Shown in pieces: positions 12,405-20,851 of a stretch of 41,631 nucleotides of DNA. The stretch's first letter is position 1; each line of letters opens with the position of its first letter. This stretch comes from Flavobacteriales bacterium (GTDB lineage: Bacteria > Bacteroidota > Bacteroidia > Flavobacteriales_D > Sanyastnellaceae). A program made the position numbers and the translations under genes. The notes beneath the pieces were generated by a model that saw nothing but the letters and a program-made list of their open reading frames with translations, was not told the origin of the DNA and made no database searches. The stretch is from assembly GCA_029245065.1 (NCBI GenBank), contig JAQWQB010000135.1, positions 1 to 41,631 on the forward strand, written 5' to 3'.

Positions 12405-15400
12405 ATGAGAATACTTTCCGCTCTCTTTGCAGTTATGCTGTCCCTGGTGTCAGTTACTGCCTCATCACAATTCCTGTGTGACAACACAGAAGTAATTGTG
12501 ACCCTCGAAACTGGCAATTGGGCCAGTGAAATCGACTTCACCATCAATGATGAATTCGGTAATCCCCTTCTAACATTTTCTGATCTTGGAATTAACCTAG
12601 AGAATAACTCAGTCTACACGGCTGTTTTGTGCTTGGATCCAGGATGTTACAACATCAGCATGATTGACCTGTTCGGTGACGGATGGAACGGTGCTGAAAT
12701 CACTGTTTCTTATTTAGATGTGGTGTTAGCCCTTGGAGGACTGTTGGAAGGAGAGTATGGAGAAGTTGGGTTCGGTGTGCTAACAGATGATTGTGGTGAA
12801 GTAACCATCCCTGGATGTACAGATCAAGAAGCATTGAACTTTGAGCCGTGGGCTACAGAAGACGATGGCTCTTGTGAATACGCGTTCTCTTGTGAAGAGG
12901 GTGTTCAGGCCATGATGTACGTATGTACATTCTCAAATGGCGAAGAAGTAAGCATCAACGTATTGGACGACGAAGGGAACTCTGTTTTTTCAGTTGAAAA
13001 CCAAACGTCTTCAATTGTTTACTACGATCTATGCTTAGAAGAAGGCATCTGCTACACAGTAGAAATGTCGAACAGCGAAGGAAACAATGGATGGTACAAC
13101 GGTTACTTCTGGGTAACAGTTGATGGTGTTCAAATCATTGAAGACGAATTGGACGCAGACGCTTCTGAAGGCGTAACATACATGTCTATCGACGGAAGCT
13201 GTCCATCTTACGGATGTACAGATCCTGAAGCATTGAACTACGACGGTGACGCCAACGAAGACGATGGCTCATGCGAATACCCTGAGGCATGTGACGATAA
13301 CCTAGTTATCTCTAGCATTTTCACAGGAACATTCGGAGGAGAAATTGAATGGCAATTGGTTGACGCTGATAACAACGTGGTATTTGAAGGTGGTGAGTAC
13401 GCTTCGAACGAAACGTACACAGACTACGCATGTATTGCAGATGGTTGCTATACATTGGTCATGATTGACACCTTCGGCGACGGATGGAACGGTGGCGAAA
13501 TCGAATTGAGCATTGGTGGTGAGACCATCGCTGTTGGCTCTTTCGAAACAGGCGTCCTAAGTCTATTGACCGTTTCTATTAATAGCGACGATTGCGAAGA
13601 AATTATTCTTGGATGTACTGATCCAGAAGCATTGAACTACAATGCAGATGCAGAATTTGATGACGGTTCTTGTGAATACCCAATTCTAGGGTGTATGGAT
13701 GAAGCAGCATTGAACTACAACCCTTGGGCAAACGAAGACGACGGTTCTTGTGAATACCCAATTGAATGCGAAGAAGGTACTGTGCTAGCGCAAGTGTACA
13801 TCTGCACATTCGGTGGCGGTGAAAACGTTGCCATGGAAATCGTTGATAGCGAAGGAAACATTGTGTTCAGTCAATTTGACCTGAACAACGGACAAATAGC
13901 ATATTTCGACGTTTGCCTTGATCCTGAGATGTGTTACACCGTAAACATGTACAACACGGCTGATGAAGGCGGATGGTACGGTGGATACTACTGGATCAAC
14001 ATCGACGGTGTTCAAGTAAGCACTGACGATTTGGATGATGACCTCATCTTCGAACAAGTATACTTCGGAGACGGATGTCCGAACCCAGGTTGCATGGATC
14101 CAGACGCATTGAACTATGACGAAGATGCCAACGAAGAAGACGGTTCTTGCGAATACCCTGAAGAGTGTGACGCCAACCTAATTGCAGTGAATACCACAAC
14201 AGGAACGTTCGGTGGTGAAATGACATGGGAAATTGCAGACAATGAAGGCACCGTTGTAATGACAGGTGGCGGATATGCTTCCAACTCAGATTACACTGAT
14301 TATACCTGTCTTGAAGACGGATGTTACTCTGTATTCTTGTATGATTCATTCGGTGACGGTTGGGATTCTGGATTCATGGAAATTACCATGGACGGTGAAA
14401 CGCTATTGATTGCAACTATTGATCAAGGAGATTTCGCGGTAGCAACACTTCCTCTCAACTCTGACGATTGTGCAGAAATTGTGAGCGGTTGTACCAACCC
14501 TGAAGCCTTGAACTACAATCCAGAAGCACAGTATGATGATGGTTCTTGTATCTATCCTATCTACGGATGTATGGATGAAGAAGCACTGAACTACAATCCG
14601 TGGGCAAACACAGACGATGGTTCTTGCCAGTACCCAATTGAATGTGACGCCAACACGGTGATGATTACAACATTCGGTGGTACGTTCCCTGGTGAAATTT
14701 CTTGGGAAGTGATTGATGATGAAGGAAATGTTGACGCTGCATTCGGAATGCAGTATGGTGACAGTCTTTTCTCTGCTCAAGCTGTTTGTCTAGAAGACGG
14801 ATGCTACACCATGGTGATGTACGATTCATTCGGCGACGGATGGAACGGCGGTTTCGTAGAGTTGATGATGGACGGAGTCTACATTGCAGGCGGTACATTT
14901 GAAACAGGCGACATGAGTGCCTTTACGTTCGGTATCAATACAGATGATTGCGAAGGCATTATCACTGGTTGTACTGATCCAGAAGCATTGAACTACAATG
15001 AAGAAGCTGAGTACGATGATGGTTCTTGTGAATACCTAATCCTAGGTTGTACAGACCCTGCAGCACTTAACTACAACTACTACGCAAATGAAGACGATGG
15101 TTCTTGTATCTATCCACTCGAGTGCGAAGACGGATTGGTACTTGCCCAAGTGTACGTATGCACATTCTCTAACGGAGATGACGTGGCCATGGACATTGTA
15201 GACGAAGAAGGAAACGTAGTGTTTGAAGCTGATGGATTGGGCGATGTGGCCATTGCATACTTCGATGTATGCCTGGATCCTGATATGTGCTACACAGTGA
15301 ACATGAGCAACACTGCTGGAAACGGCGGATGGTACGGTGGTTACTACTGGATCAATTTTGGTGGTGAGCAAATCAGCACAGAGTCATTGGATCAGGACGC

Positions 15401-16229
15401 AACCAATGAATCAGTTAACTTCTCTATCAACGGAACATGTGAAGACGAAATCGTATTCGGCTGTACAGATGAAGAAGCAATAAACTACAACGAAGATGCT
15501 GACGAAGACGATGGTTCTTGTGAATACGCTGAGCCGTGTGATGCGAACGAAGTATTGTTCACAGCACAAACAGGAAACTGGGCAAACGAAATCTCTTGGT
15601 CTATCTGGAACAGCGATAGTACTGAAGTGGCTTACGGAGGATTCTACGAATCAAACACCGTAATTACGGAAGACCTCTGCCTAGAAGACGGATGCTACAC
15701 GTTCAACATGTTCGACTCATTCGGTGACGGATGGAACGGTGCAATCGTAGTATTGGTGATTGATGAATTCACAGCTATCAGCTTCGAATTGACAACAGGA
15801 AGCTTTGACTCAGCGCAGTTCAGCATCAATGCAGATTGTGACGAAGAAGCGGTACTTGGGTGCACTGATCCAGAAGCATTGAACTTCAACTTCAACGCAA
15901 CAGAAGATGATGGTTCTTGTATCTACCCAGGTATCTACGAAGATCCAATGTACATGTGGACAGATCACGAAACAGCAATTGAGTTTGGATTGGCTCCAAA
16001 CCCATCTGACAACTTCGTATTCTTGACATTCAATCAAATCAATCCAACTGAGCGCCTTACGGTTGATATTTATGACGCTGTTGGAAGATTGGTACTTACG
16101 AAGGATTTCGGTCTAAACCTTGAGTACTTCACAACAGACATGAACCTAGAATCACTTGAAAGTGGTGCTTACATGGTTGTTGTTACCAATGGTACTTCTA
16201 CGACTACTGAACGCTTGATCAAGCAGTAA
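12405..16229 (+). CDS. large modular secreted protein with 11 Gly-Cys/DDGSC repeats and T9SS type A sorting domain
   Basis: 1274 residues from ATG 12405; a TTG at 12360 would put 15 residues before the signal peptide (MRILSALFAVMLSLVSVTASS) and is not used. Two module types of ~90-110 residues alternate: five 'FGDGW' modules (A) and three 'GWY(N/G)GY(F/Y)W' modules (B), each with paired Cys. They are joined by eleven ~24-residue linkers of the form GCTDPEALNY...A..DDGSCEYP. Order: A-r-B-r-A-rr-B-r-A-rr-A-rr-B-r-A-r-CTD. The acidic linkers, with two Cys and an Asp/Glu cluster, look like disulfide-stapled metal-binding loops (inferred). The tail 'FGLAPNPSDNFVFLTFNQ' to 'TTTERLIKQ' is a T9SS type A domain, so the protein is exported to the surface or medium. 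Codon use is regular and favours a few codons, consistent with high expression. Role unknown; adhesion or matrix is plausible. Confidence 0.85.
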   Translation: MRILSALFAVMLSLVSVTASSQFLCDNTEVIVTLETGNWASEIDFTINDEFGNPLLTFSDLGINLENNSVYTAVLCLDPGCYNISMIDLFGDGWNGAEITVSYLDVVLALGGLLEGEYGEVGFGVLTDDCGEVTIPGCTDQEALNFEPWATEDDGSCEYAFSCEEGVQAMMYVCTFSNGEEVSINVLDDEGNSVFSVENQTSSIVYYDLCLEEGICYTVEMSNSEGNNGWYNGYFWVTVDGVQIIEDELDADASEGVTYMSIDGSCPSYGCTDPEALNYDGDANEDDGSCEYPEACDDNLVISSIFTGTFGGEIEWQLVDADNNVVFEGGEYASNETYTDYACIADGCYTLVMIDTFGDGWNGGEIELSIGGETIAVGSFETGVLSLLTVSINSDDCEEIILGCTDPEALNYNADAEFDDGSCEYPILGCMDEAALNYNPWANEDDGSCEYPIECEEGTVLAQVYICTFGGGENVAMEIVDSEGNIVFSQFDLNNGQIAYFDVCLDPEMCYTVNMYNTADEGGWYGGYYWINIDGVQVSTDDLDDDLIFEQVYFGDGCPNPGCMDPDALNYDEDANEEDGSCEYPEECDANLIAVNTTTGTFGGEMTWEIADNEGTVVMTGGGYASNSDYTDYTCLEDGCYSVFLYDSFGDGWDSGFMEITMDGETLLIATIDQGDFAVATLPLNSDDCAEIVSGCTNPEALNYNPEAQYDDGSCIYPIYGCMDEEALNYNPWANTDDGSCQYPIECDANTVMITTFGGTFPGEISWEVIDDEGNVDAAFGMQYGDSLFSAQAVCLEDGCYTMVMYDSFGDGWNGGFVELMMDGVYIAGGTFETGDMSAFTFGINTDDCEGIITGCTDPEALNYNEEAEYDDGSCEYLILGCTDPAALNYNYYANEDDGSCIYPLECEDGLVLAQVYVCTFSNGDDVAMDIVDEEGNVVFEADGLGDVAIAYFDVCLDPDMCYTVNMSNTAGNGGWYGGYYWINFGGEQISTESLDQDATNESVNFSINGTCEDEIVFGCTDEEAINYNEDADEDDGSCEYAEPCDANEVLFTAQTGNWANEISWSIWNSDSTEVAYGGFYESNTVITEDLCLEDGCYTFNMFDSFGDGWNGAIVVLVIDEFTAISFELTTGSFDSAQFSINADCDEEAVLGCTDPEALNFNFNATEDDGSCIYPGIYEDPMYMWTDHETAIEFGLAPNPSDNFVFLTFNQINPTERLTVDIYDAVGRLVLTKDFGLNLEYFTTDMNLESLESGAYMVVVTNGTSTTTERLIKQ

Positions 16230-16308: not shown

Positions 16309-17505
16309 TTGCACCTTCTTCTATACAGTCTGTTCATCGTTGTGCTCTGTATTCCTGCTTCGGCACAAGATACCTACCTCGATAGCATCAATGTATTGCT
16401 AGCGTCCAACCCTGGAGAGGAACGTACCGCAGAATTACTTTGGGATGCCGCGTATTACACCTTGGATATCGACGAGACGTATACAAGACAGTATACAGAG
16501 CCCTTGTTGGAACTTCCAACCATTAAAGCAGATAGCACCCTACTAATTGAAGCGTTACGAGTACAGTCTGATGCGGATAGGTGGACCGGAAAATACACCA
16601 AGGGTATCGAAAATTTTAAGACGTGTTATGACTACTACACACGTATGCAAGACACCACGAACATCATTTTCTGCGCCAATCATTTAGGCAGCATGAAGGT
16701 GTTTATGGGCTACAACCAAGAGGCACAGAAATACATCTTTGAAGTGTATGACCTCACCAAGGCTCAAGGAGATCCTGCCGAGATTGGTCATGCCACCAAC
16801 GGACTAGCCATTTTCTACACTAACATCGGTCAAGACGACAAAGGAATTGAGCGTTACATAGAGGCACTTGAAATTTTTGAGGAGGTGCAAGACACCATCG
16901 GTCAAGGCAGACTAGACACCTTGCTAAACTACCCCCGCGGATTAGGCTTTCACTTTGATTTCATGGGCTACCTACGTTCAGAACAAGGCAGGCATGAAGA
17001 AGCATATGAGATGTACACTACTGCACTCACCATTCGAAAAGAGCTTCCTAGCAATTACAACATCAGTGAGTCGCGGGTTTGTGTTGCCTCATCACTCTTC
17101 GAACTGGGCCGATATGACGAAGCCATTCAACAAGCACAAATCATACTTGATGAAGAGCGCATTCAACTGCACTTGGACATTGAAGACGTAGAGATTGATG
17201 TAGATACGCTGGTACCTCTCGGGCTCATCATCAACGAACTCGTTACCAACTCGCTCAAGTATGCTTTCCCAGGAGAGCGCTTAGGCAAGTTGAACATCAA
17301 CTTACGTGAAGAAGCTGAACGCCTCAAACTCACCGTAACTGATGATGGGGTGGGCTATGACAAAACCACCACCAAGCAAAGTTCGTTTGGCAACAAGCTC
17401 ATCGCCTCCTTGACCAAGCAACTCAAGGGAGAAATGACCGCCTTGGCCACCAGCGGCACCGAAGTCAGCATTGCTTTCAAGCAATACAAGCTATCCCGCC
17501 GCTAA
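16309..17505 (+). pseudogene. TPR sensor histidine kinase with internal deletion (no membrane segment, no H-box)
   Basis: 398 codons from a TTG. Signal peptide-like start (LLLYSLFIVVLCIPASAQ), then TPR-type helices to about residue 283 ('GRYDEAIQQAQIILDEER'). This runs directly into the end of a HisKA_2-type kinase: 'IQLHLDIEDVEIDVDTLVPL', the N-box 'GLIINELVTNSLKYAFP', G1 'VTDDGVGYD' and the C-terminal strands. Full members have further TPRs, a transmembrane helix and a 'HHRVKNNLQ' phospho-acceptor domain between these parts; all are missing. 'LDEER' fits both sides, so an in-frame deletion at a short homology is likely. The product would be exported with its ATPase domain outside the membrane and without a His to phosphorylate, hence probably non-functional. 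The TTG overlaps TAGCTTTTG, a promoter-like motif, so the real start may also be lost. Confidence 0.65.
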
Positions 17506-17551
17506 AAAAGGGCGCCCCGCCTGCGTGCGTCCTGTCAAAAGAGAAGATTCG

Positions 17552-17559
17552 TACCTTCA
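17552..17559 (+). promoter_or_regulatory. -7 promoter-like element TACCTTCA, 4 bases before ATG
   Basis: Near match to TAnnTTTG placed directly before the ATG at 17564. It supports that ATG as the start and suggests a leaderless message. Confidence 0.45.
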
Positions 17560-17563
17560 CACC

Positions 17564-20500
17564 ATGCGCCTCTCGCACTGTGCTATGTTAATCCTCCTGC
17601 TCTTGGCTTCCTGTTCCGAAGTCGAAAGGCCGTTGCCTGCAACATTATTTGAATACCTCGAAGCGCCCGAAACAGGAGTTACCTTCCAAAACGAAATCAA
17701 CGAACGGGTTGGTCGGAACGTTGGAACCTATGATTACATGTACAACGGTGGCGGCGTGGCCATCGTAGACCTGAACAACGACGGTCTTCCAGATCTCGTG
17801 TTTTGTGGCAACGATGTGCCTTCGGAAATTTACCAGAACAACGGTGATTTTCAATTCGAAAACAAGACCGAAAACAGCGGAGTGCATCACGGTGGTTGGA
17901 CCACCGGAGTGACCATCGTAGACATCAACCAAGACGGACTTCAAGACATCTATTTTTCGCGTAGCGGACCTGATTTCAAGATAGAAACGACGACCAACCT
18001 GCTGTACATCAACCAAGGCGATTTTACGTTCACAGAAGAAGCGAAGAACTACGGCATCAACGACAGAGGCCTCTCTAGCCAGTCAGTGTTTTTCGATAAA
18101 GATGCAGATGGCGACCTAGATCTGCTGGTATTGAATCACAGTGTGCGCAATTGGGCCAACCGTCCTTCAGAATGGCTACAACACGAACGCACCTTATCGG
18201 AATTAAGCAGGGAACGCTACCTCAACAAGTGGTACGAGCGCACTTCGCCCACCTCCTTTGAAGAAATGGCTCCCTCTTCTTTTTCAAGGGAGAGCGTGCC
18301 CACTCCTGGTTTCAGTCTGAGCGCAAGTATTGCCGATTTCGACAACAATCAAAAGCCAGGCATTTTCATCACCAACGACTTCTTCATCCAAGATCAATTG
18401 TACGCTTCAGGCAAAAATGGATGGCGAAATAAGATCAAAGAGAAGTTCCATCACACCAGTTTCTACTCCATGGGTTCTGATGCCGCCGACTTCAACAATG
18501 ATGGACTAGTAGATCTCATGGTGGCAGACATGAGTCCCAGTGATCACATCAGAAGCAAAGTGCTGATGCCTGCCATGGACACCGCCCAATTTCGCTACCT
18601 GGAACGCATGCATTTTATGGGCCAATTCATGTTCAATGCCTTGTACATGAACGCGGGAGACGGTGCCATGAGCGACATTGCGCAACTGGCCGGAGTAGCA
18701 CAAACGGATTGGAGTTGGGCACCCCTATTTGCCGACTTAGACAACGACGGTTGGAAAGACTTATACGTCACCAACGGCGTCTACCGAGCGGTTACCAACA
18801 ATGATTGGCGAAAAGAAGTGGTGGAGGCCATCAATGCAGATTCACTCACGCAAGAATTGTACTACCAGTTACTTCTTGACGCACCCCAAACACCCATGGT
18901 CAACGCGGTCTTCAAAAACACTACTGGCCTCCAATTTAGCGACCAAGCAAGCGAATGGGGCTTGACCCAACCGACGTTTTCACAAGGGTTGGCCATGGGC
19001 GATTTAGACCAAGACGGCGATCTTGACATTGTCACCAATAACCTCGGCCAGCCCGCTTCCATCATTCGCAATACGGCTGCAGACCGAGGAAACAATTTCA
19101 TCCGAATCACCTTAGAAAACCCTGAAGTTGACGGGGCAAAAGTGACCATTTGGGCCAATGGTAAGCAACAACTTCAAGAATACCGCTTCACCCGAGGGTA
19201 CCAAAGTTTTTCAGAGCCGGTGCTCCATTTCGGCTTGGGAACAGCCACCACCGTTGATAGCATCCGCGTAGTTTGGCCAAACGGCGAACGAACCCGTCAT
19301 GACCAGCTGGCCATCAACCAACGACATAGCTTGCAGAAAACATCGCCCATCGCCACTGCCAAAGACAAGATACCAACAGAATTAACTTATTGGAATATTG
19401 GAATGGCATTTCAAGGTCTGAGTCCAACGCACCGAGAGAATAACTTTGACGACTTTAAGAAAGAGCAACTGCTTCCGCACCGCACGTCTGCCATGGGACC
19501 GGGGCTTGCCGTGGCAGATATCAATGGAGACGGACTAGATGATGTTTTCTTAGGCGGGGCGAAAGGGCAAGCTTCACAAATCAGGATTCAAACCGCCAAT
19601 GGGTTTTTCCAGCCCATGGTGCAAAATGTCTTCCAGCAAGAACGTGATGGCGAGGTGCTTGGTGCGGCATTTTTTGATTTCGACCAAGATGGAGACCAAG
19701 ATCTTTACGTGGCTAGAGGTGGCGGAGGTGATGTAGAGGAAACGCCTGAATTATGGCAAGACTTGCTGTATGTGAATGACGGCCAAGGCAGCTTTTCGGT
19801 CTCAACGTCACTCCCATCCATGCCTCATTCAACACAGGCCATTGTAACCTTCGACTTCGACCAAGACGGCGACCTTGACGTCTTTGTAGGAGGAAGAAAC
19901 ACGCCAGGTCTTTACCCGTTCGGCACGCGAAGTTTTCTCTTGCGCAACGAAGCGGGAACATTCACAGATGCAACGGAAGATTGTGCGCCTTGGCTGCTAA
20001 ATTCGAACATGATCACAGATGCCGTTTGGCTTCAGAACACCACCTATCCCTTGCTAATTGTTGTGGGCGAATGGATGGAGCCCCAAGCGCTTGAGCTTAG
20101 AAATACGGAATCGGGCTATTCGTTGGTTCCATTGACCATAGACGCCTTTGTCAATCAAAGTGGGTGGTGGCACAGCATCAATCACCTCGAGGTCAATGAC
20201 GAAGAGCTAATTGTGTTGGGGAACCATGGACTCAACACCAAGTTCCATCCAACTCGTCAAAAACCGCTGCACCTCTATGCGGGCGATTTCGATCAAAATG
20301 GCGTGTCAGACATTGTGTTGAGCAAGCACTACCAAGGACAGTTGGTGCCCATTCGGGGGCTGGCCTGCAGCAGCGGTCAGATTCCCGATATCAAAGAGCG
20401 CTTCCCTACGTATGAAGCCTTTGCCGAAGCCGACCTCGCTTCCATTCTAGGGATCGATGACTTGGAGGAAGTGCAATCGTTCATCGCCACTACATTCGAA

Positions 20501-20851
20501 AGTGGGTTCATCCGTCTCAAAGATGGAAGACTAACTGACTTCGAACCCTTTCCTATGAATGCACAAGTCTCTCCCATTATGGACGCCATTGCAATTGATA
20601 ACGATGTGATCGTTTCAGGGAACCTCTTTACCACGGAAATTGAGACGGTTCCAAATGACGCCGGATTTGGTACTGTTTTGCGCTTTGATCTCGGAGGGCT
20701 GACGGTTCATAGCCCAATCTTCTCTGGTGTATTCCTGCCTCAAGATGTGCGCAAGATGCGGGCCATCAACCTGTCTTCAGAACAGATTCCCGGATTTGTT
20801 GCAGCAACTAACAACGGGGAAGTCGAGATTATAATGAAGGGGCAAGAATAA
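17564..20851 (+). CDS. large FG-GAP/VCBS and ASPIC-domain lipoprotein
   Basis: 1095 residues from ATG 17564; the open frame extends 31 codons upstream but overlaps the preceding gene and lacks a leader. The start MRLSHCAMLILLLLASCSE is a lipoprotein signal with lipobox LLASC. FG-GAP/VCBS repeats with calcium-loop motifs ('VDLNNDGLPDLVF', 'VDINQDGLQDIYF', 'DFNNDGLVDLMVAD', 'LDNDGWKDLYVTNG', 'DLDQDGDLDIVTNN') fill residues ~55-505. An ASPIC/UnbV domain follows (~510-580, 'VRVVWPNGE'-like 'IRVVWPNGERTRHDQL'), and a second propeller begins at 'GLAVADINGDGLDDVFLGG'. It has no T9SS tail, so it is likely anchored in the outer membrane by lipid. The ligand is unknown; such proteins often sit beside surface polymer-use genes, but none is recognised here. 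Confidence 0.85.
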   Translation: MRLSHCAMLILLLLASCSEVERPLPATLFEYLEAPETGVTFQNEINERVGRNVGTYDYMYNGGGVAIVDLNNDGLPDLVFCGNDVPSEIYQNNGDFQFENKTENSGVHHGGWTTGVTIVDINQDGLQDIYFSRSGPDFKIETTTNLLYINQGDFTFTEEAKNYGINDRGLSSQSVFFDKDADGDLDLLVLNHSVRNWANRPSEWLQHERTLSELSRERYLNKWYERTSPTSFEEMAPSSFSRESVPTPGFSLSASIADFDNNQKPGIFITNDFFIQDQLYASGKNGWRNKIKEKFHHTSFYSMGSDAADFNNDGLVDLMVADMSPSDHIRSKVLMPAMDTAQFRYLERMHFMGQFMFNALYMNAGDGAMSDIAQLAGVAQTDWSWAPLFADLDNDGWKDLYVTNGVYRAVTNNDWRKEVVEAINADSLTQELYYQLLLDAPQTPMVNAVFKNTTGLQFSDQASEWGLTQPTFSQGLAMGDLDQDGDLDIVTNNLGQPASIIRNTAADRGNNFIRITLENPEVDGAKVTIWANGKQQLQEYRFTRGYQSFSEPVLHFGLGTATTVDSIRVVWPNGERTRHDQLAINQRHSLQKTSPIATAKDKIPTELTYWNIGMAFQGLSPTHRENNFDDFKKEQLLPHRTSAMGPGLAVADINGDGLDDVFLGGAKGQASQIRIQTANGFFQPMVQNVFQQERDGEVLGAAFFDFDQDGDQDLYVARGGGGDVEETPELWQDLLYVNDGQGSFSVSTSLPSMPHSTQAIVTFDFDQDGDLDVFVGGRNTPGLYPFGTRSFLLRNEAGTFTDATEDCAPWLLNSNMITDAVWLQNTTYPLLIVVGEWMEPQALELRNTESGYSLVPLTIDAFVNQSGWWHSINHLEVNDEELIVLGNHGLNTKFHPTRQKPLHLYAGDFDQNGVSDIVLSKHYQGQLVPIRGLACSSGQIPDIKERFPTYEAFAEADLASILGIDDLEEVQSFIATTFESGFIRLKDGRLTDFEPFPMNAQVSPIMDAIAIDNDVIVSGNLFTTEIETVPNDAGFGTVLRFDLGGLTVHSPIFSGVFLPQDVRKMRAINLSSEQIPGFVAATNNGEVEIIMKGQE

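What the first reader, a model, noticed from the sequence alone, without database searches (positions are those of the whole stretch)
12405..16229. 1274-residue T9SS protein built of two alternating module types stapled by eleven DDGSC linkers
The order A-r-B-r-A-rr-B-r-A-rr-A-rr-B-r-A-r-CTD is very regular. Each ~24-residue linker has two Cys (GC...GSC) around an acidic, Asn/Tyr-containing loop, which looks like a disulfide-closed metal-binding hairpin. The A modules (FGDGW) and B modules (GWYxGYYW) look like related beta-sandwiches that diverged. Copies differ in sequence, so it is an old array, yet double linkers (rr) suggest module loss or gain.
Basis: partly seen in the sequence, partly recalled or inferred. 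Interest (0 to 1): 0.6.

Follow-up and report, generated by a model that had tools for sequence, protein, structure and literature searches.

The report
Bacterial surface bead-chain with perforin-2-like linkers
A marine-type bacterium encodes an apparently exported protein made of eight small beta-sandwich beads joined by eleven two-cysteine clips; the same clip motif sits at the hinge of the animal immune protein perforin-2, and in a relative one bead unit was lost by a break inside the clips, so the clips look like both mechanical and genetic joints.

Summary
Window 12405-16229 encodes 1274 aa: A-r-B-r-A-rr-B-r-A-rr-A-rr-B-r-A-r-CTD, eleven linkers of exactly 23 aa and a type IX (T9SS) sorting tail. 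A and B are homologous 8-strand sandwiches. Linkers are predicted folded. The linker profile matches one solved protein, MPEG1/perforin-2 (E 5.8e-7; Cys-fixed shuffled control: none), in its 'EGF-like' connector. A's closest fold is calcium-dependent CBM60 (Z 8.0, borderline); B weakly resembles DUF3244. No Pfam model was listed for the linker. Two relatives of one genus (784/866 aligned residues identical) differ by one r-A-rr-B unit whose breakpoints lie inside linkers, leaving a chimeric linker. The genome holds at least 163 linkers. Viral contigs carry arrays of up to 30 linkers, a third of frames with T9SS-like tails. Most likely a T9SS-exported surface adhesin or glycan-binding stalk; export, bonds, metal and ligand are untested.

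The parts
12405..16229 (+). CDS of the 1274-aa array protein (stop included)
12405..12470 (+). probable signal peptide (residues 1-22), read by eye only
   Evidence: no signal-peptide program was run
12474..12812 (+). A module 1 (FGDGW type)
   Evidence: groups with the first A of four of six relatives, 98/96
12813..12881 (+). linker r1
12882..13211 (+). B module 1 (GWYxGYxW type); DUF3244 19.3 bits alone, cut-off 25
13212..13280 (+). linker r2
   Evidence: in the model
13281..13610 (+). A module 2; acidic triad E313, D355, D359 (E21/D63/D67 of the module)
13611..13679 (+). linker r3 (first of a pair)
13689..13757 (+). linker r4 (second of a pair)
13758..14087 (+). B module 2
14088..14156 (+). 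linker r5
14157..14486 (+). A module 3
14487..14555 (+). linker r6
14565..14633 (+). linker r7
14634..14966 (+). A module 4
14967..15035 (+). linker r8
15045..15113 (+). linker r9
15114..15458 (+). B module 3
15459..15527 (+). linker r10
15528..15857 (+). A module 5 (weak Pfam CBM60 match inside the whole protein, E 0.13, below cut-off; not listed when scanned alone)
15858..15926 (+). linker r11
15996..16220 (+). T9SS type A sorting domain (Por_Secre_tail)

Best explanation
The gene encodes a protein exported by the type IX secretion system: a chain of eight rigid beta-sandwich beads of about 110 residues held apart by 23-residue, two-cysteine mini-modules and ended by a type A sorting tail. 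Shown here by computation: the array, the predicted fold class, the homology of A and B, the sequence kinship of the linker with the connector of MPEG1/perforin-2, T9SS components in the genome, copy-number change in relatives, and one unit difference with both breakpoints inside linkers. Inferred: (1) each linker closes by its own Cys-Cys bond and acts as a short folded hinge or spacer; (2) A modules each carry one metal site, probably Ca2+ (E21, D63, D67), used directly or indirectly to bind a glycan or another surface polymer in the manner of CBM60; (3) B modules lost that site and kept an aromatic strand, so they are structural or bind by stacking; (4) the whole is a multivalent surface or secreted adhesin; (5) because linkers are alike at DNA level, recombination between them adds or drops whole modules in frame, so length and valency can change without breaking a bead.
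For: Sorting tail and machinery: (117 tails at E<=1e-5 in the genome, 150 of 154 candidates scored). Fold: r-A-rr-B-r model mean pLDDT 93.9, pTM 0.56, which fits rigid units of unsure mutual orientation; A alone pLDDT 94.4, pTM 0.85. Nearest solved folds of A: 2xfd vCBM60 Z 8.0, rmsd 2.5, 86 aligned; 2xhh Z 7.5, rmsd 2.8, 90 aligned; best other rows 6.4 (two-module model 8.3 and 7.9 against 6.7). Acidic triad: in 314 distinct A-profile hits not filtered by motif, E21 and D67 are both present in 268, both absent in 30, discordant in 16; E21 and D63 269, 30, 15; Tyr57 and Cys56 do not track E21. B: N at the D63 place in 36 of 40, W255 40 of 40, Y259 39 of 40, F260 37 of 40. Linker in MPEG1: control; [quoted passage not shown] Module loss. 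Linkers sit beside many other domains in this genome: lysyl oxidase, PKD, lamin tail, reprolysin, peptidyl-arginine deiminase, GH16, FG-GAP, SprB (16 of the 42 frames were scanned).
Against: No ligand, calcium or export experiment exists. The CBM60 match is a fold match at borderline Z (the tool warns that Z under 8 may be only a common arrangement) with 9-10% identity; Pfam CBM60 is not reached (13.2 bits against 28.2) and is not listed for 75 A modules or for the window modules alone. A rival kinship exists: DUF3244, an Ig-like sandwich, matches the whole window protein over its cut-off (31.7 against 25, best stretch in B1), though single B modules stay below it (19.3, 15.0, none); 14 of 56 B modules reach E<=0.1, best 6e-5, and DUF3244 structures also match A (4g5a Z 6.1, rmsd 2.4, 68 aligned, 18% identity). 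The triad co-loss counts related sequences, so it may reflect few events; Gly91 also tracks E21 (p 1.7e-5). Only 13 of the 42 linker- or A-bearing frames carry a PF18962 tail (searches compared by contig and frame length); some frames are cut by contig ends. Five Cys in B leave one without a partner inside the module. The unit junction is a single event.
Confidence: 0.55

Rival explanations
1. A pure spacer or scaffold: the beads bind nothing specific and the protein is a stiff stalk or coat on the cell surface; the acidic triad is a structural metal site.
For: Near-constant module size of 110-115 residues and regular spacing; linkers sit between very different domains in the genome; linker-rich arrays with few or no A modules in viral contigs; A matches PLAT/C2-like and DUF3244 Ig-like folds almost as well as CBM60, and B is weakly kin to DUF3244.
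Against: A keeps the acidic triad and W69 and B a W-Y-F/W strand, which a bare spacer would not obviously need.
Confidence: 0.28
2. The linker is the metal-binding element: a disulphide-closed acidic loop that stiffens the chain when Ca2+ is present.
For: Conserved D4, N9, D17, D18 around the loop; some other linker proteins of the genome have calcium- or metal-like neighbours (EF-hand_6 E 0.0056, below cut-off; Cu-binding_MopE).
Against: The word calcium does not occur in the two MPEG1 structure papers searched for it (PMC6989145, PMC6753088); D4, D17 or D18 is replaced by N in 4-24% of copies, by place and data set.
Confidence: 0.12
3. Arms-race protein: the array is a variable surface coat that hides or offers phage receptors, and phages encode look-alike arrays with T9SS tails to dress or block the host surface.
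For: Viral contigs carry A modules and arrays of up to 30 linkers; 33 of 91 frames end in a T9SS-like tail by pattern, and the two tested reach the Pfam cut-off; one lies next to a holin-family gene. Phage-encoded T9SS cargo has been reported (PMC7468147, passages).
Against: No phage record matched the window protein itself; no expression or infection data; in L208, L240 and L214 only 2 of 10 neighbours scanned have a PHROG match.
Confidence: 0.15
4. The linker match to MPEG1 is convergence: two short Cys-closed Asp-rich loops that look alike.
For: Only 22-23 residues; no eukaryotic sequence collection could be searched here.
Against: E 5.8e-7 with 50 natural linkers; the five PDB sequences under E 0.1 are all MPEG1 (a sixth row, a cell wall anchor protein, has E 0.71); no match up to E 10 when columns other than the two Cys are permuted.
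Confidence: 0.25

Closest known systems
MPEG1/perforin-2 'truncated EGF-like' connector (PDB 6u2j residues 332-353 of the chain; 6sb3)
   Same: Same 22-23-residue GC..D....N[FY]N..A..DDGSC pattern; lies between two folded domains; described as a small folded linker and as focal point of rotation.
   Different: One copy in an animal pore-forming protein; here eleven copies in a bacterial chain, and at least 163 in the genome.
CBM60 / CBM36 calcium-dependent carbohydrate-binding modules (2xfd, 2xhh)
   Same: Small beta-sandwich, best structural match of A (Z 8.0 and 7.5).
   Different: About 10% identity; Pfam CBM60 not reached; no CBM60 match in 247 genomes of the phylum at E<=1e-5; ligand unknown; A has conserved Cys pairs.
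DUF3244 (PF11589), Ig-like sandwich of Bacteroides proteins (4g5a, 3d33)
   Same: Whole window protein over the Pfam cut-off through B1 (31.7 against 25); 14 of 56 B modules at E<=0.1; 4g5a matches A at Z 6.1.
   Different: Single B modules stay below the cut-off; 42 of 56 B modules show no match at E<=0.1; A modules show none.
T9SS type A cargo proteins of Bacteroidota
   Same: Por_Secre_tail at the C-terminus, PorU and SprA in the genome.
   Different: The cargo body is built of a linker family for which no Pfam model was listed in the proteins scanned and of modules with at most weak Pfam matches.
Phage-encoded T9SS cargo (Cryophage, PMC7468147)
   Same: Viral genes ending in a T9SS tail (passages read).
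   Different: There an endoglucanase, a GH39 and a PA14 protein; here A modules with linker arrays.

Membership tests
T9SS type A cargo | Por_Secre_tail / TIGR04183 domain at the C-terminus over the curated cut-off | tested here: met
   49.3 bits against 27; 41.3 against 23
T9SS type A cargo | T9SS translocon and sortase in the same genome | tested here: met
   SprA TIGR04189 in two contig-end pieces, both over cut-off; PorU NF033707 1242.5 bits against 420
T9SS type A cargo | N-terminal Sec signal peptide | not tested
   seen by eye; no predictor at hand
T9SS type A cargo | actual export and tail removal | not testable with these tools
   needs proteomics
CBM60 (A module) | Pfam PF16841 over its cut-off | tested here: not met
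   13.2 bits against 28.2 in the whole protein; not listed for 75 A modules or the five window A modules alone
CBM60 (A module) | same fold | tested here: inconclusive
   best structural match, Z 8.0, rmsd 2.5, 86 aligned, but only 1.6 above unrelated rows
CBM60 (A module) | calcium-dependent glycan binding | not testable with these tools
   acidic triad co-loss is suggestive only
DUF3244 (B module) | Pfam PF11589 over its cut-off | tested here: inconclusive
   whole protein 31.7 bits against 25; single B modules 19.3, 15.0 and no match; 14 of 56 B modules at E<=0.1
EGF-like domain (linker) | match to Pfam EGF models | tested here: not met
   no EGF family listed for the window protein up to E 0.5 or for six linker-rich proteins up to E 0.01
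MPEG1 connector (linker) | significant sequence match to the MPEG1 connector | tested here: met
   E 6.4e-6 from the eleven window copies, 5.8e-7 from 50 copies; control none
MPEG1 connector (linker) | same three-dimensional structure and disulphide | not tested
   linkers predicted confidently, but no coordinates were at hand to superpose

The most novel reading that the evidence does not exclude
The 23-residue clip is a mobile, self-folding connector shared by bacteria, their phages and animals: at protein level a disulphide-locked hinge, at DNA level a recombination handle whose DDGSC-coding stretch lets whole beads be swapped or dropped in frame. Marine phages of Bacteroidota carry the same clips and A beads on T9SS-sorted proteins to remodel the host surface from outside, and the hinge of animal perforin-2 descends from the same element.
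Probability: 0.22. Interest if true: 0.82.

Novelty: new variant of a known kind. Interest (0 to 1): 0.6.

Why it matters
It gives an abundant, unnamed protein part a likely fold and kin. The linker occurs at least 163 times in one 3.2 Mb genome, no Pfam or NCBIfam model was listed for it in the proteins scanned, and yet it has a solved counterpart in perforin-2. The junction between two near relatives shows how an extracellular repeat protein can lose a whole module in frame by a break inside its linkers, which makes a general idea about modular surface proteins directly testable. The arrays in viral contigs point to a phage-host contest over the T9SS-built surface.

Tried and rejected
Literature on the motifs: searches for DDGSC (11 papers) and FGDGW (1 paper) anywhere in the text listed none that looks relevant by title; MPEG1 with EGF-like and Bacteroidetes gave 0 papers; five of six terms on T9SS cysteine-rich repeats gave 0. 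These cover open-licence PMC papers only. The primary CBM60/36 structure paper is not held and vCBM60 occurs in no held paper, so CBM60 calcium ligands were not compared.

Conserved operon: blastp of window frames against 12 of the 77 named loci shows no neighbour held in step with the array gene; the nearest to it is one L118 protein upstream of the array, which matches two window proteins at 24-30% identity. Phage origin of the window gene: no match in 50,697 phage records. Sequence kin in the PDB: none convincing for A (antibody chains at E 0.12 and above) or B (best E 0.11). PHROGs: five weak matches, best E 0.002. Pairing of a second linker Cys with a Cys downstream by covariation: not clean (own genome p 0.41; named genomes the opposite direction, p 0.0066; viral positive, p 0.0039). 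Within the linker, C16 occurs only with C8 in the own genome (29 of 29), less strictly elsewhere (28 of 45 in named loci, 1 of 24 viral).

Selection: the 70 A modules of A6 from other loci were required to contain FGDG or DGW, so invariance of D67-G68-W69 is partly built in; the count without that filter is, though aligned onto A6. Several relatives hold A-like modules without the triad. Of 41 segments, 38 were used with 2 window segments for A5; the three of 345-348 residues in L164, L166 and L171 were dropped. Linker counts come from an HMM of the eleven window copies, so remote linkers are missed; one search counts Cys in the hit plus two residues, and the stricter place-2-and-21 figures are quoted here. 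Gap survey: 21 pairs chosen by hand; 12 gaps of 15 aa or more: 3 at N-termini, 2 long ones in one pair aligned poorly at its ends, 7 inside arrays, of which 5 are 52-aa gaps (two 26-residue linker periods) in related viral contigs that are not independent; the 'junction spans linker' flag was true for 5 of 12 and is ambiguous in tandem linkers. blastp put the L092/L110 pair at 76% because its alignment ran across the gap; 784 of 866 is from mafft.

Full report
What is there. The open frame 12405-16229 (+) encodes 1274 residues. A pattern search finds eleven linkers, each exactly 23 residues, and the order A-r-B-r-A-rr-B-r-A-rr-A-rr-B-r-A-r-CTD is exactly as reported. The tail is a type A T9SS sorting domain (PF18962 49.3 bits, cut-off 27; TIGR04183). 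The genome holds PorU, SprA (in two contig-end pieces) and 117 such tails at E<=1e-5. The beginning reads as a signal peptide by eye.

Age. Linker copies differ at a mean 0.63 of synonymous and 0.19 of non-synonymous sites, A copies at 0.66-0.83 and 0.32-0.50, B copies at 0.57-0.80 and 0.24-0.38: old copies under constraint, with no recent duplication in the window. A tree of 46 modules from the window and six relatives separates A from B at 100/100 and groups the first A of the window with the first A of four of the six relatives at 98/96; 19 of its 43 inner branches have support under 80.

Fold. An AlphaFold2 model of residues 270-584 (r-A-rr-B-r; 40-row alignment) has mean pLDDT 93.9 and pTM 0.56. 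Ten-residue blocks that cover linkers score 89-95, except one of 82 that straddles a linker's end and the start of A, so linkers have a defined predicted fold; the low pTM fits beads whose mutual orientation is open. A and B show the same order of eight strands, and their profiles match with 97.9% probability. A alone gives pLDDT 94.4 and pTM 0.85. Its nearest solved folds are 2xfd (vCBM60, Z 8.0, rmsd 2.5, 86 aligned) and 2xhh (Z 7.5, rmsd 2.8, 90 aligned; its entry title, shown in the same call, speaks of calcium-dependent carbohydrate binding modules). The next rows, lipoxygenase and alpha-toxin domains (PLAT/C2-like, as I recall), reach 6.4, and a DUF3244 protein, 4g5a, reaches 6.1 with rmsd 2.4 over 68 residues at 18% identity. 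The CBM60 match is a lead, not a filing: Pfam CBM60 is not reached. Among predicted viral structures A matches, with Foldseek E 3.4e-8, a Fadolivirus protein labelled caspase and, at 7.0e-6, an uncultured virus protein with a sorting domain.

Pfam kin of the modules. DUF3244 passes its cut-off on the whole window protein (31.7 bits against 25, best stretch in B1). Scanned alone, the three B modules give 19.3, 15.0 and no match, and the five A modules none for that family. Of 56 B modules from the window and named loci, 14 match DUF3244 at E<=0.1, best 6e-5. So B may be a distant relative of that Ig-like family of unknown function; this speaks neither for nor against glycan binding, but it weakens the case for CBM60 as the one nearest family of the pair.

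The acidic site. In 314 distinct A-profile hits not filtered by motif, E21, D63 and D67 come and go together: E21/D67 both present 268, both absent 30, discordant 16; E21/D63 269, 30 and 15. Tyr57 and Cys56 do not track E21; Gly91 does, more weakly. Sequences are related, so this may be few events. B has N at the D63 place in 36 of 40 rows, no conserved D67, and conserved W255, G258, Y259 and F260. I infer one metal site in A, lost in B.

The linker. A profile of the eleven window copies matches MPEG1/perforin-2 in the PDB at E 6.4e-6; with 50 diverse copies 5.8e-7, and the five matching PDB sequences below E 0.1 are all MPEG1 (one further row, a cell wall anchor protein, has E 0.71). Keeping the two Cys and permuting the other columns leaves no match up to E 10. 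The stretch lies between the MACPF and P2 domains; passages read in PMC6989145 call the domain there truncated EGF-like and a focal point for rotation, PMC7593815 a small folded linker postulated to be EGF-like, PMC9713709 says it becomes unresolved in the pore, PMC9418332 counts it in a robust core. That the 332-353 match is part of that domain follows from its place in the chain, not from a figure I could see. The bacterial linkers match no EGF model.

Spread. At least 163 linkers lie in 42 frames (linker or A) of the 30 stretches and the window that I scanned (the genome search scored 150 of 199 candidates). In the 16 frames scanned, neighbours include lysyl oxidase, PKD, lamin-tail, reprolysin, peptidyl-arginine deiminase, GH16, FG-GAP and SprB domains. 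In a draw of 296 genomes of the phylum, 21 have a linker at E<=1e-4; eleven of these belong to one genus with a single match each, and in the one read (G273) it lies right after the signal peptide. All 101 genomes drawn from the family match the window protein somewhere at E<=0.001, though a match can be tail or linker only. No other genome of the window's genus is held.

Module loss. G011 (locus L092) and ALOHA_ZT_13 (L110; its 921-residue frame has the length of the G031 frame and was identical to it in the 200-residue stretch compared) belong to one genus by the table and share 784 of 866 aligned residues. L110 lacks one 299-residue r-A-rr-B unit. Its junction linker begins like the linker before the unit and ends like the one after it. 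Of the diagnostic bases from 300 nt before the linker to 300 nt after it, 87 of 115 before the switch match the left parent and 203 of 224 after it the right parent; the switch falls between bases 48 and 69 of the linker, the DDGSCEY-coding stretch, which is identical in the two G011 parents. As the rr-B-r stretches of the two G011 units are only 71.5% identical in DNA (565 columns), the duplication looks older than the split and L110 looks like the loser; gain by transfer in G011 is not excluded. Other relatives have ArBrArBrArBrAr, ArBrArrArArArAr and more. In 37 named-locus arrays with a B and at least three modules, some cut by contig ends, the last module is A in 36.

Viral arrays. Of these 33 end in a T9SS-like tail by pattern, 49 do not, 9 are cut; the tail reached the Pfam cut-off in both that I tested. 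One frame has 30 linkers. L188 carries two A modules, 18 linkers and a tail-like end, and is followed by a holin-family gene (5.2e-31); L214 has a ribonucleotide reductase nearby. Phage T9SS cargo has been described before (PMC7468147, passages). Synechococcus phage S-CAM3 holds linker-like sequence in a protein annotated as virion structural.

Verdict. The best reading is a T9SS-exported, multivalent surface or secreted protein whose beads may bind glycans through a metal site in A, held by hinge-like clips that also serve as recombination sites. Export, disulphides, metal and ligand remain untested.

Noticed in passing
L188:5191-8493; L240:2901-7415; L187-L264: Viral contigs encode A modules and arrays of up to 30 linkers; 33 of 91 frames end in a T9SS-like sorting tail.
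   Followed up: partly
L208, L223, L217, L227, L233, L246, L250: In five compared pairs of related viral arrays there is a gap of exactly 52 residues, two 26-residue linker periods.
   Followed up: partly
L113:2386-6144: A linker-rich bacterial protein beside an array gene carries three matches to the ALK/LTK glycine-rich domain, best known (as I recall) from animal receptors (5.7e-90).
   Followed up: no
BFVD A0A7D3UU47 (Fadolivirus FV1/VV64): A giant-virus protein labelled caspase has a predicted domain like the A module (Foldseek E 3.4e-8, TM 0.77 by query).
   Followed up: no
L273:5572-7122 (Synechococcus phage S-CAM3, NC_031906.1 36382-37932): A cyanophage virion structural protein contains linker-like sequence although its host group has no T9SS as far as I recall.
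   Followed up: no
window 13758-14087 and the other B modules: B has five Cys (an extra Cys in YVCTF, 39 of 40 rows), so one is left without a partner inside the module; it might form inter-chain bonds.
   Followed up: no
window 16309-20851: Downstream lie a TPR protein with a histidine-kinase-like ATPase domain and a 1126-aa FG-GAP/ASPIC-UnbV protein; they are not held beside the array in the 12 relatives compared, save a weak FG-GAP-type match (24%) upstream of the L118 array.
   Followed up: partly
L265:2234-3196: A protein of another genus of the class has a single linker directly after its signal peptide; eleven genomes of that genus have a one-linker frame of 328-349 residues.
   Followed up: no
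window 12882-13211: The Pfam match of B1 to DUF3244, an Ig-like family of unknown function, suggests a distant kin of the whole module pair.
   Followed up: partly
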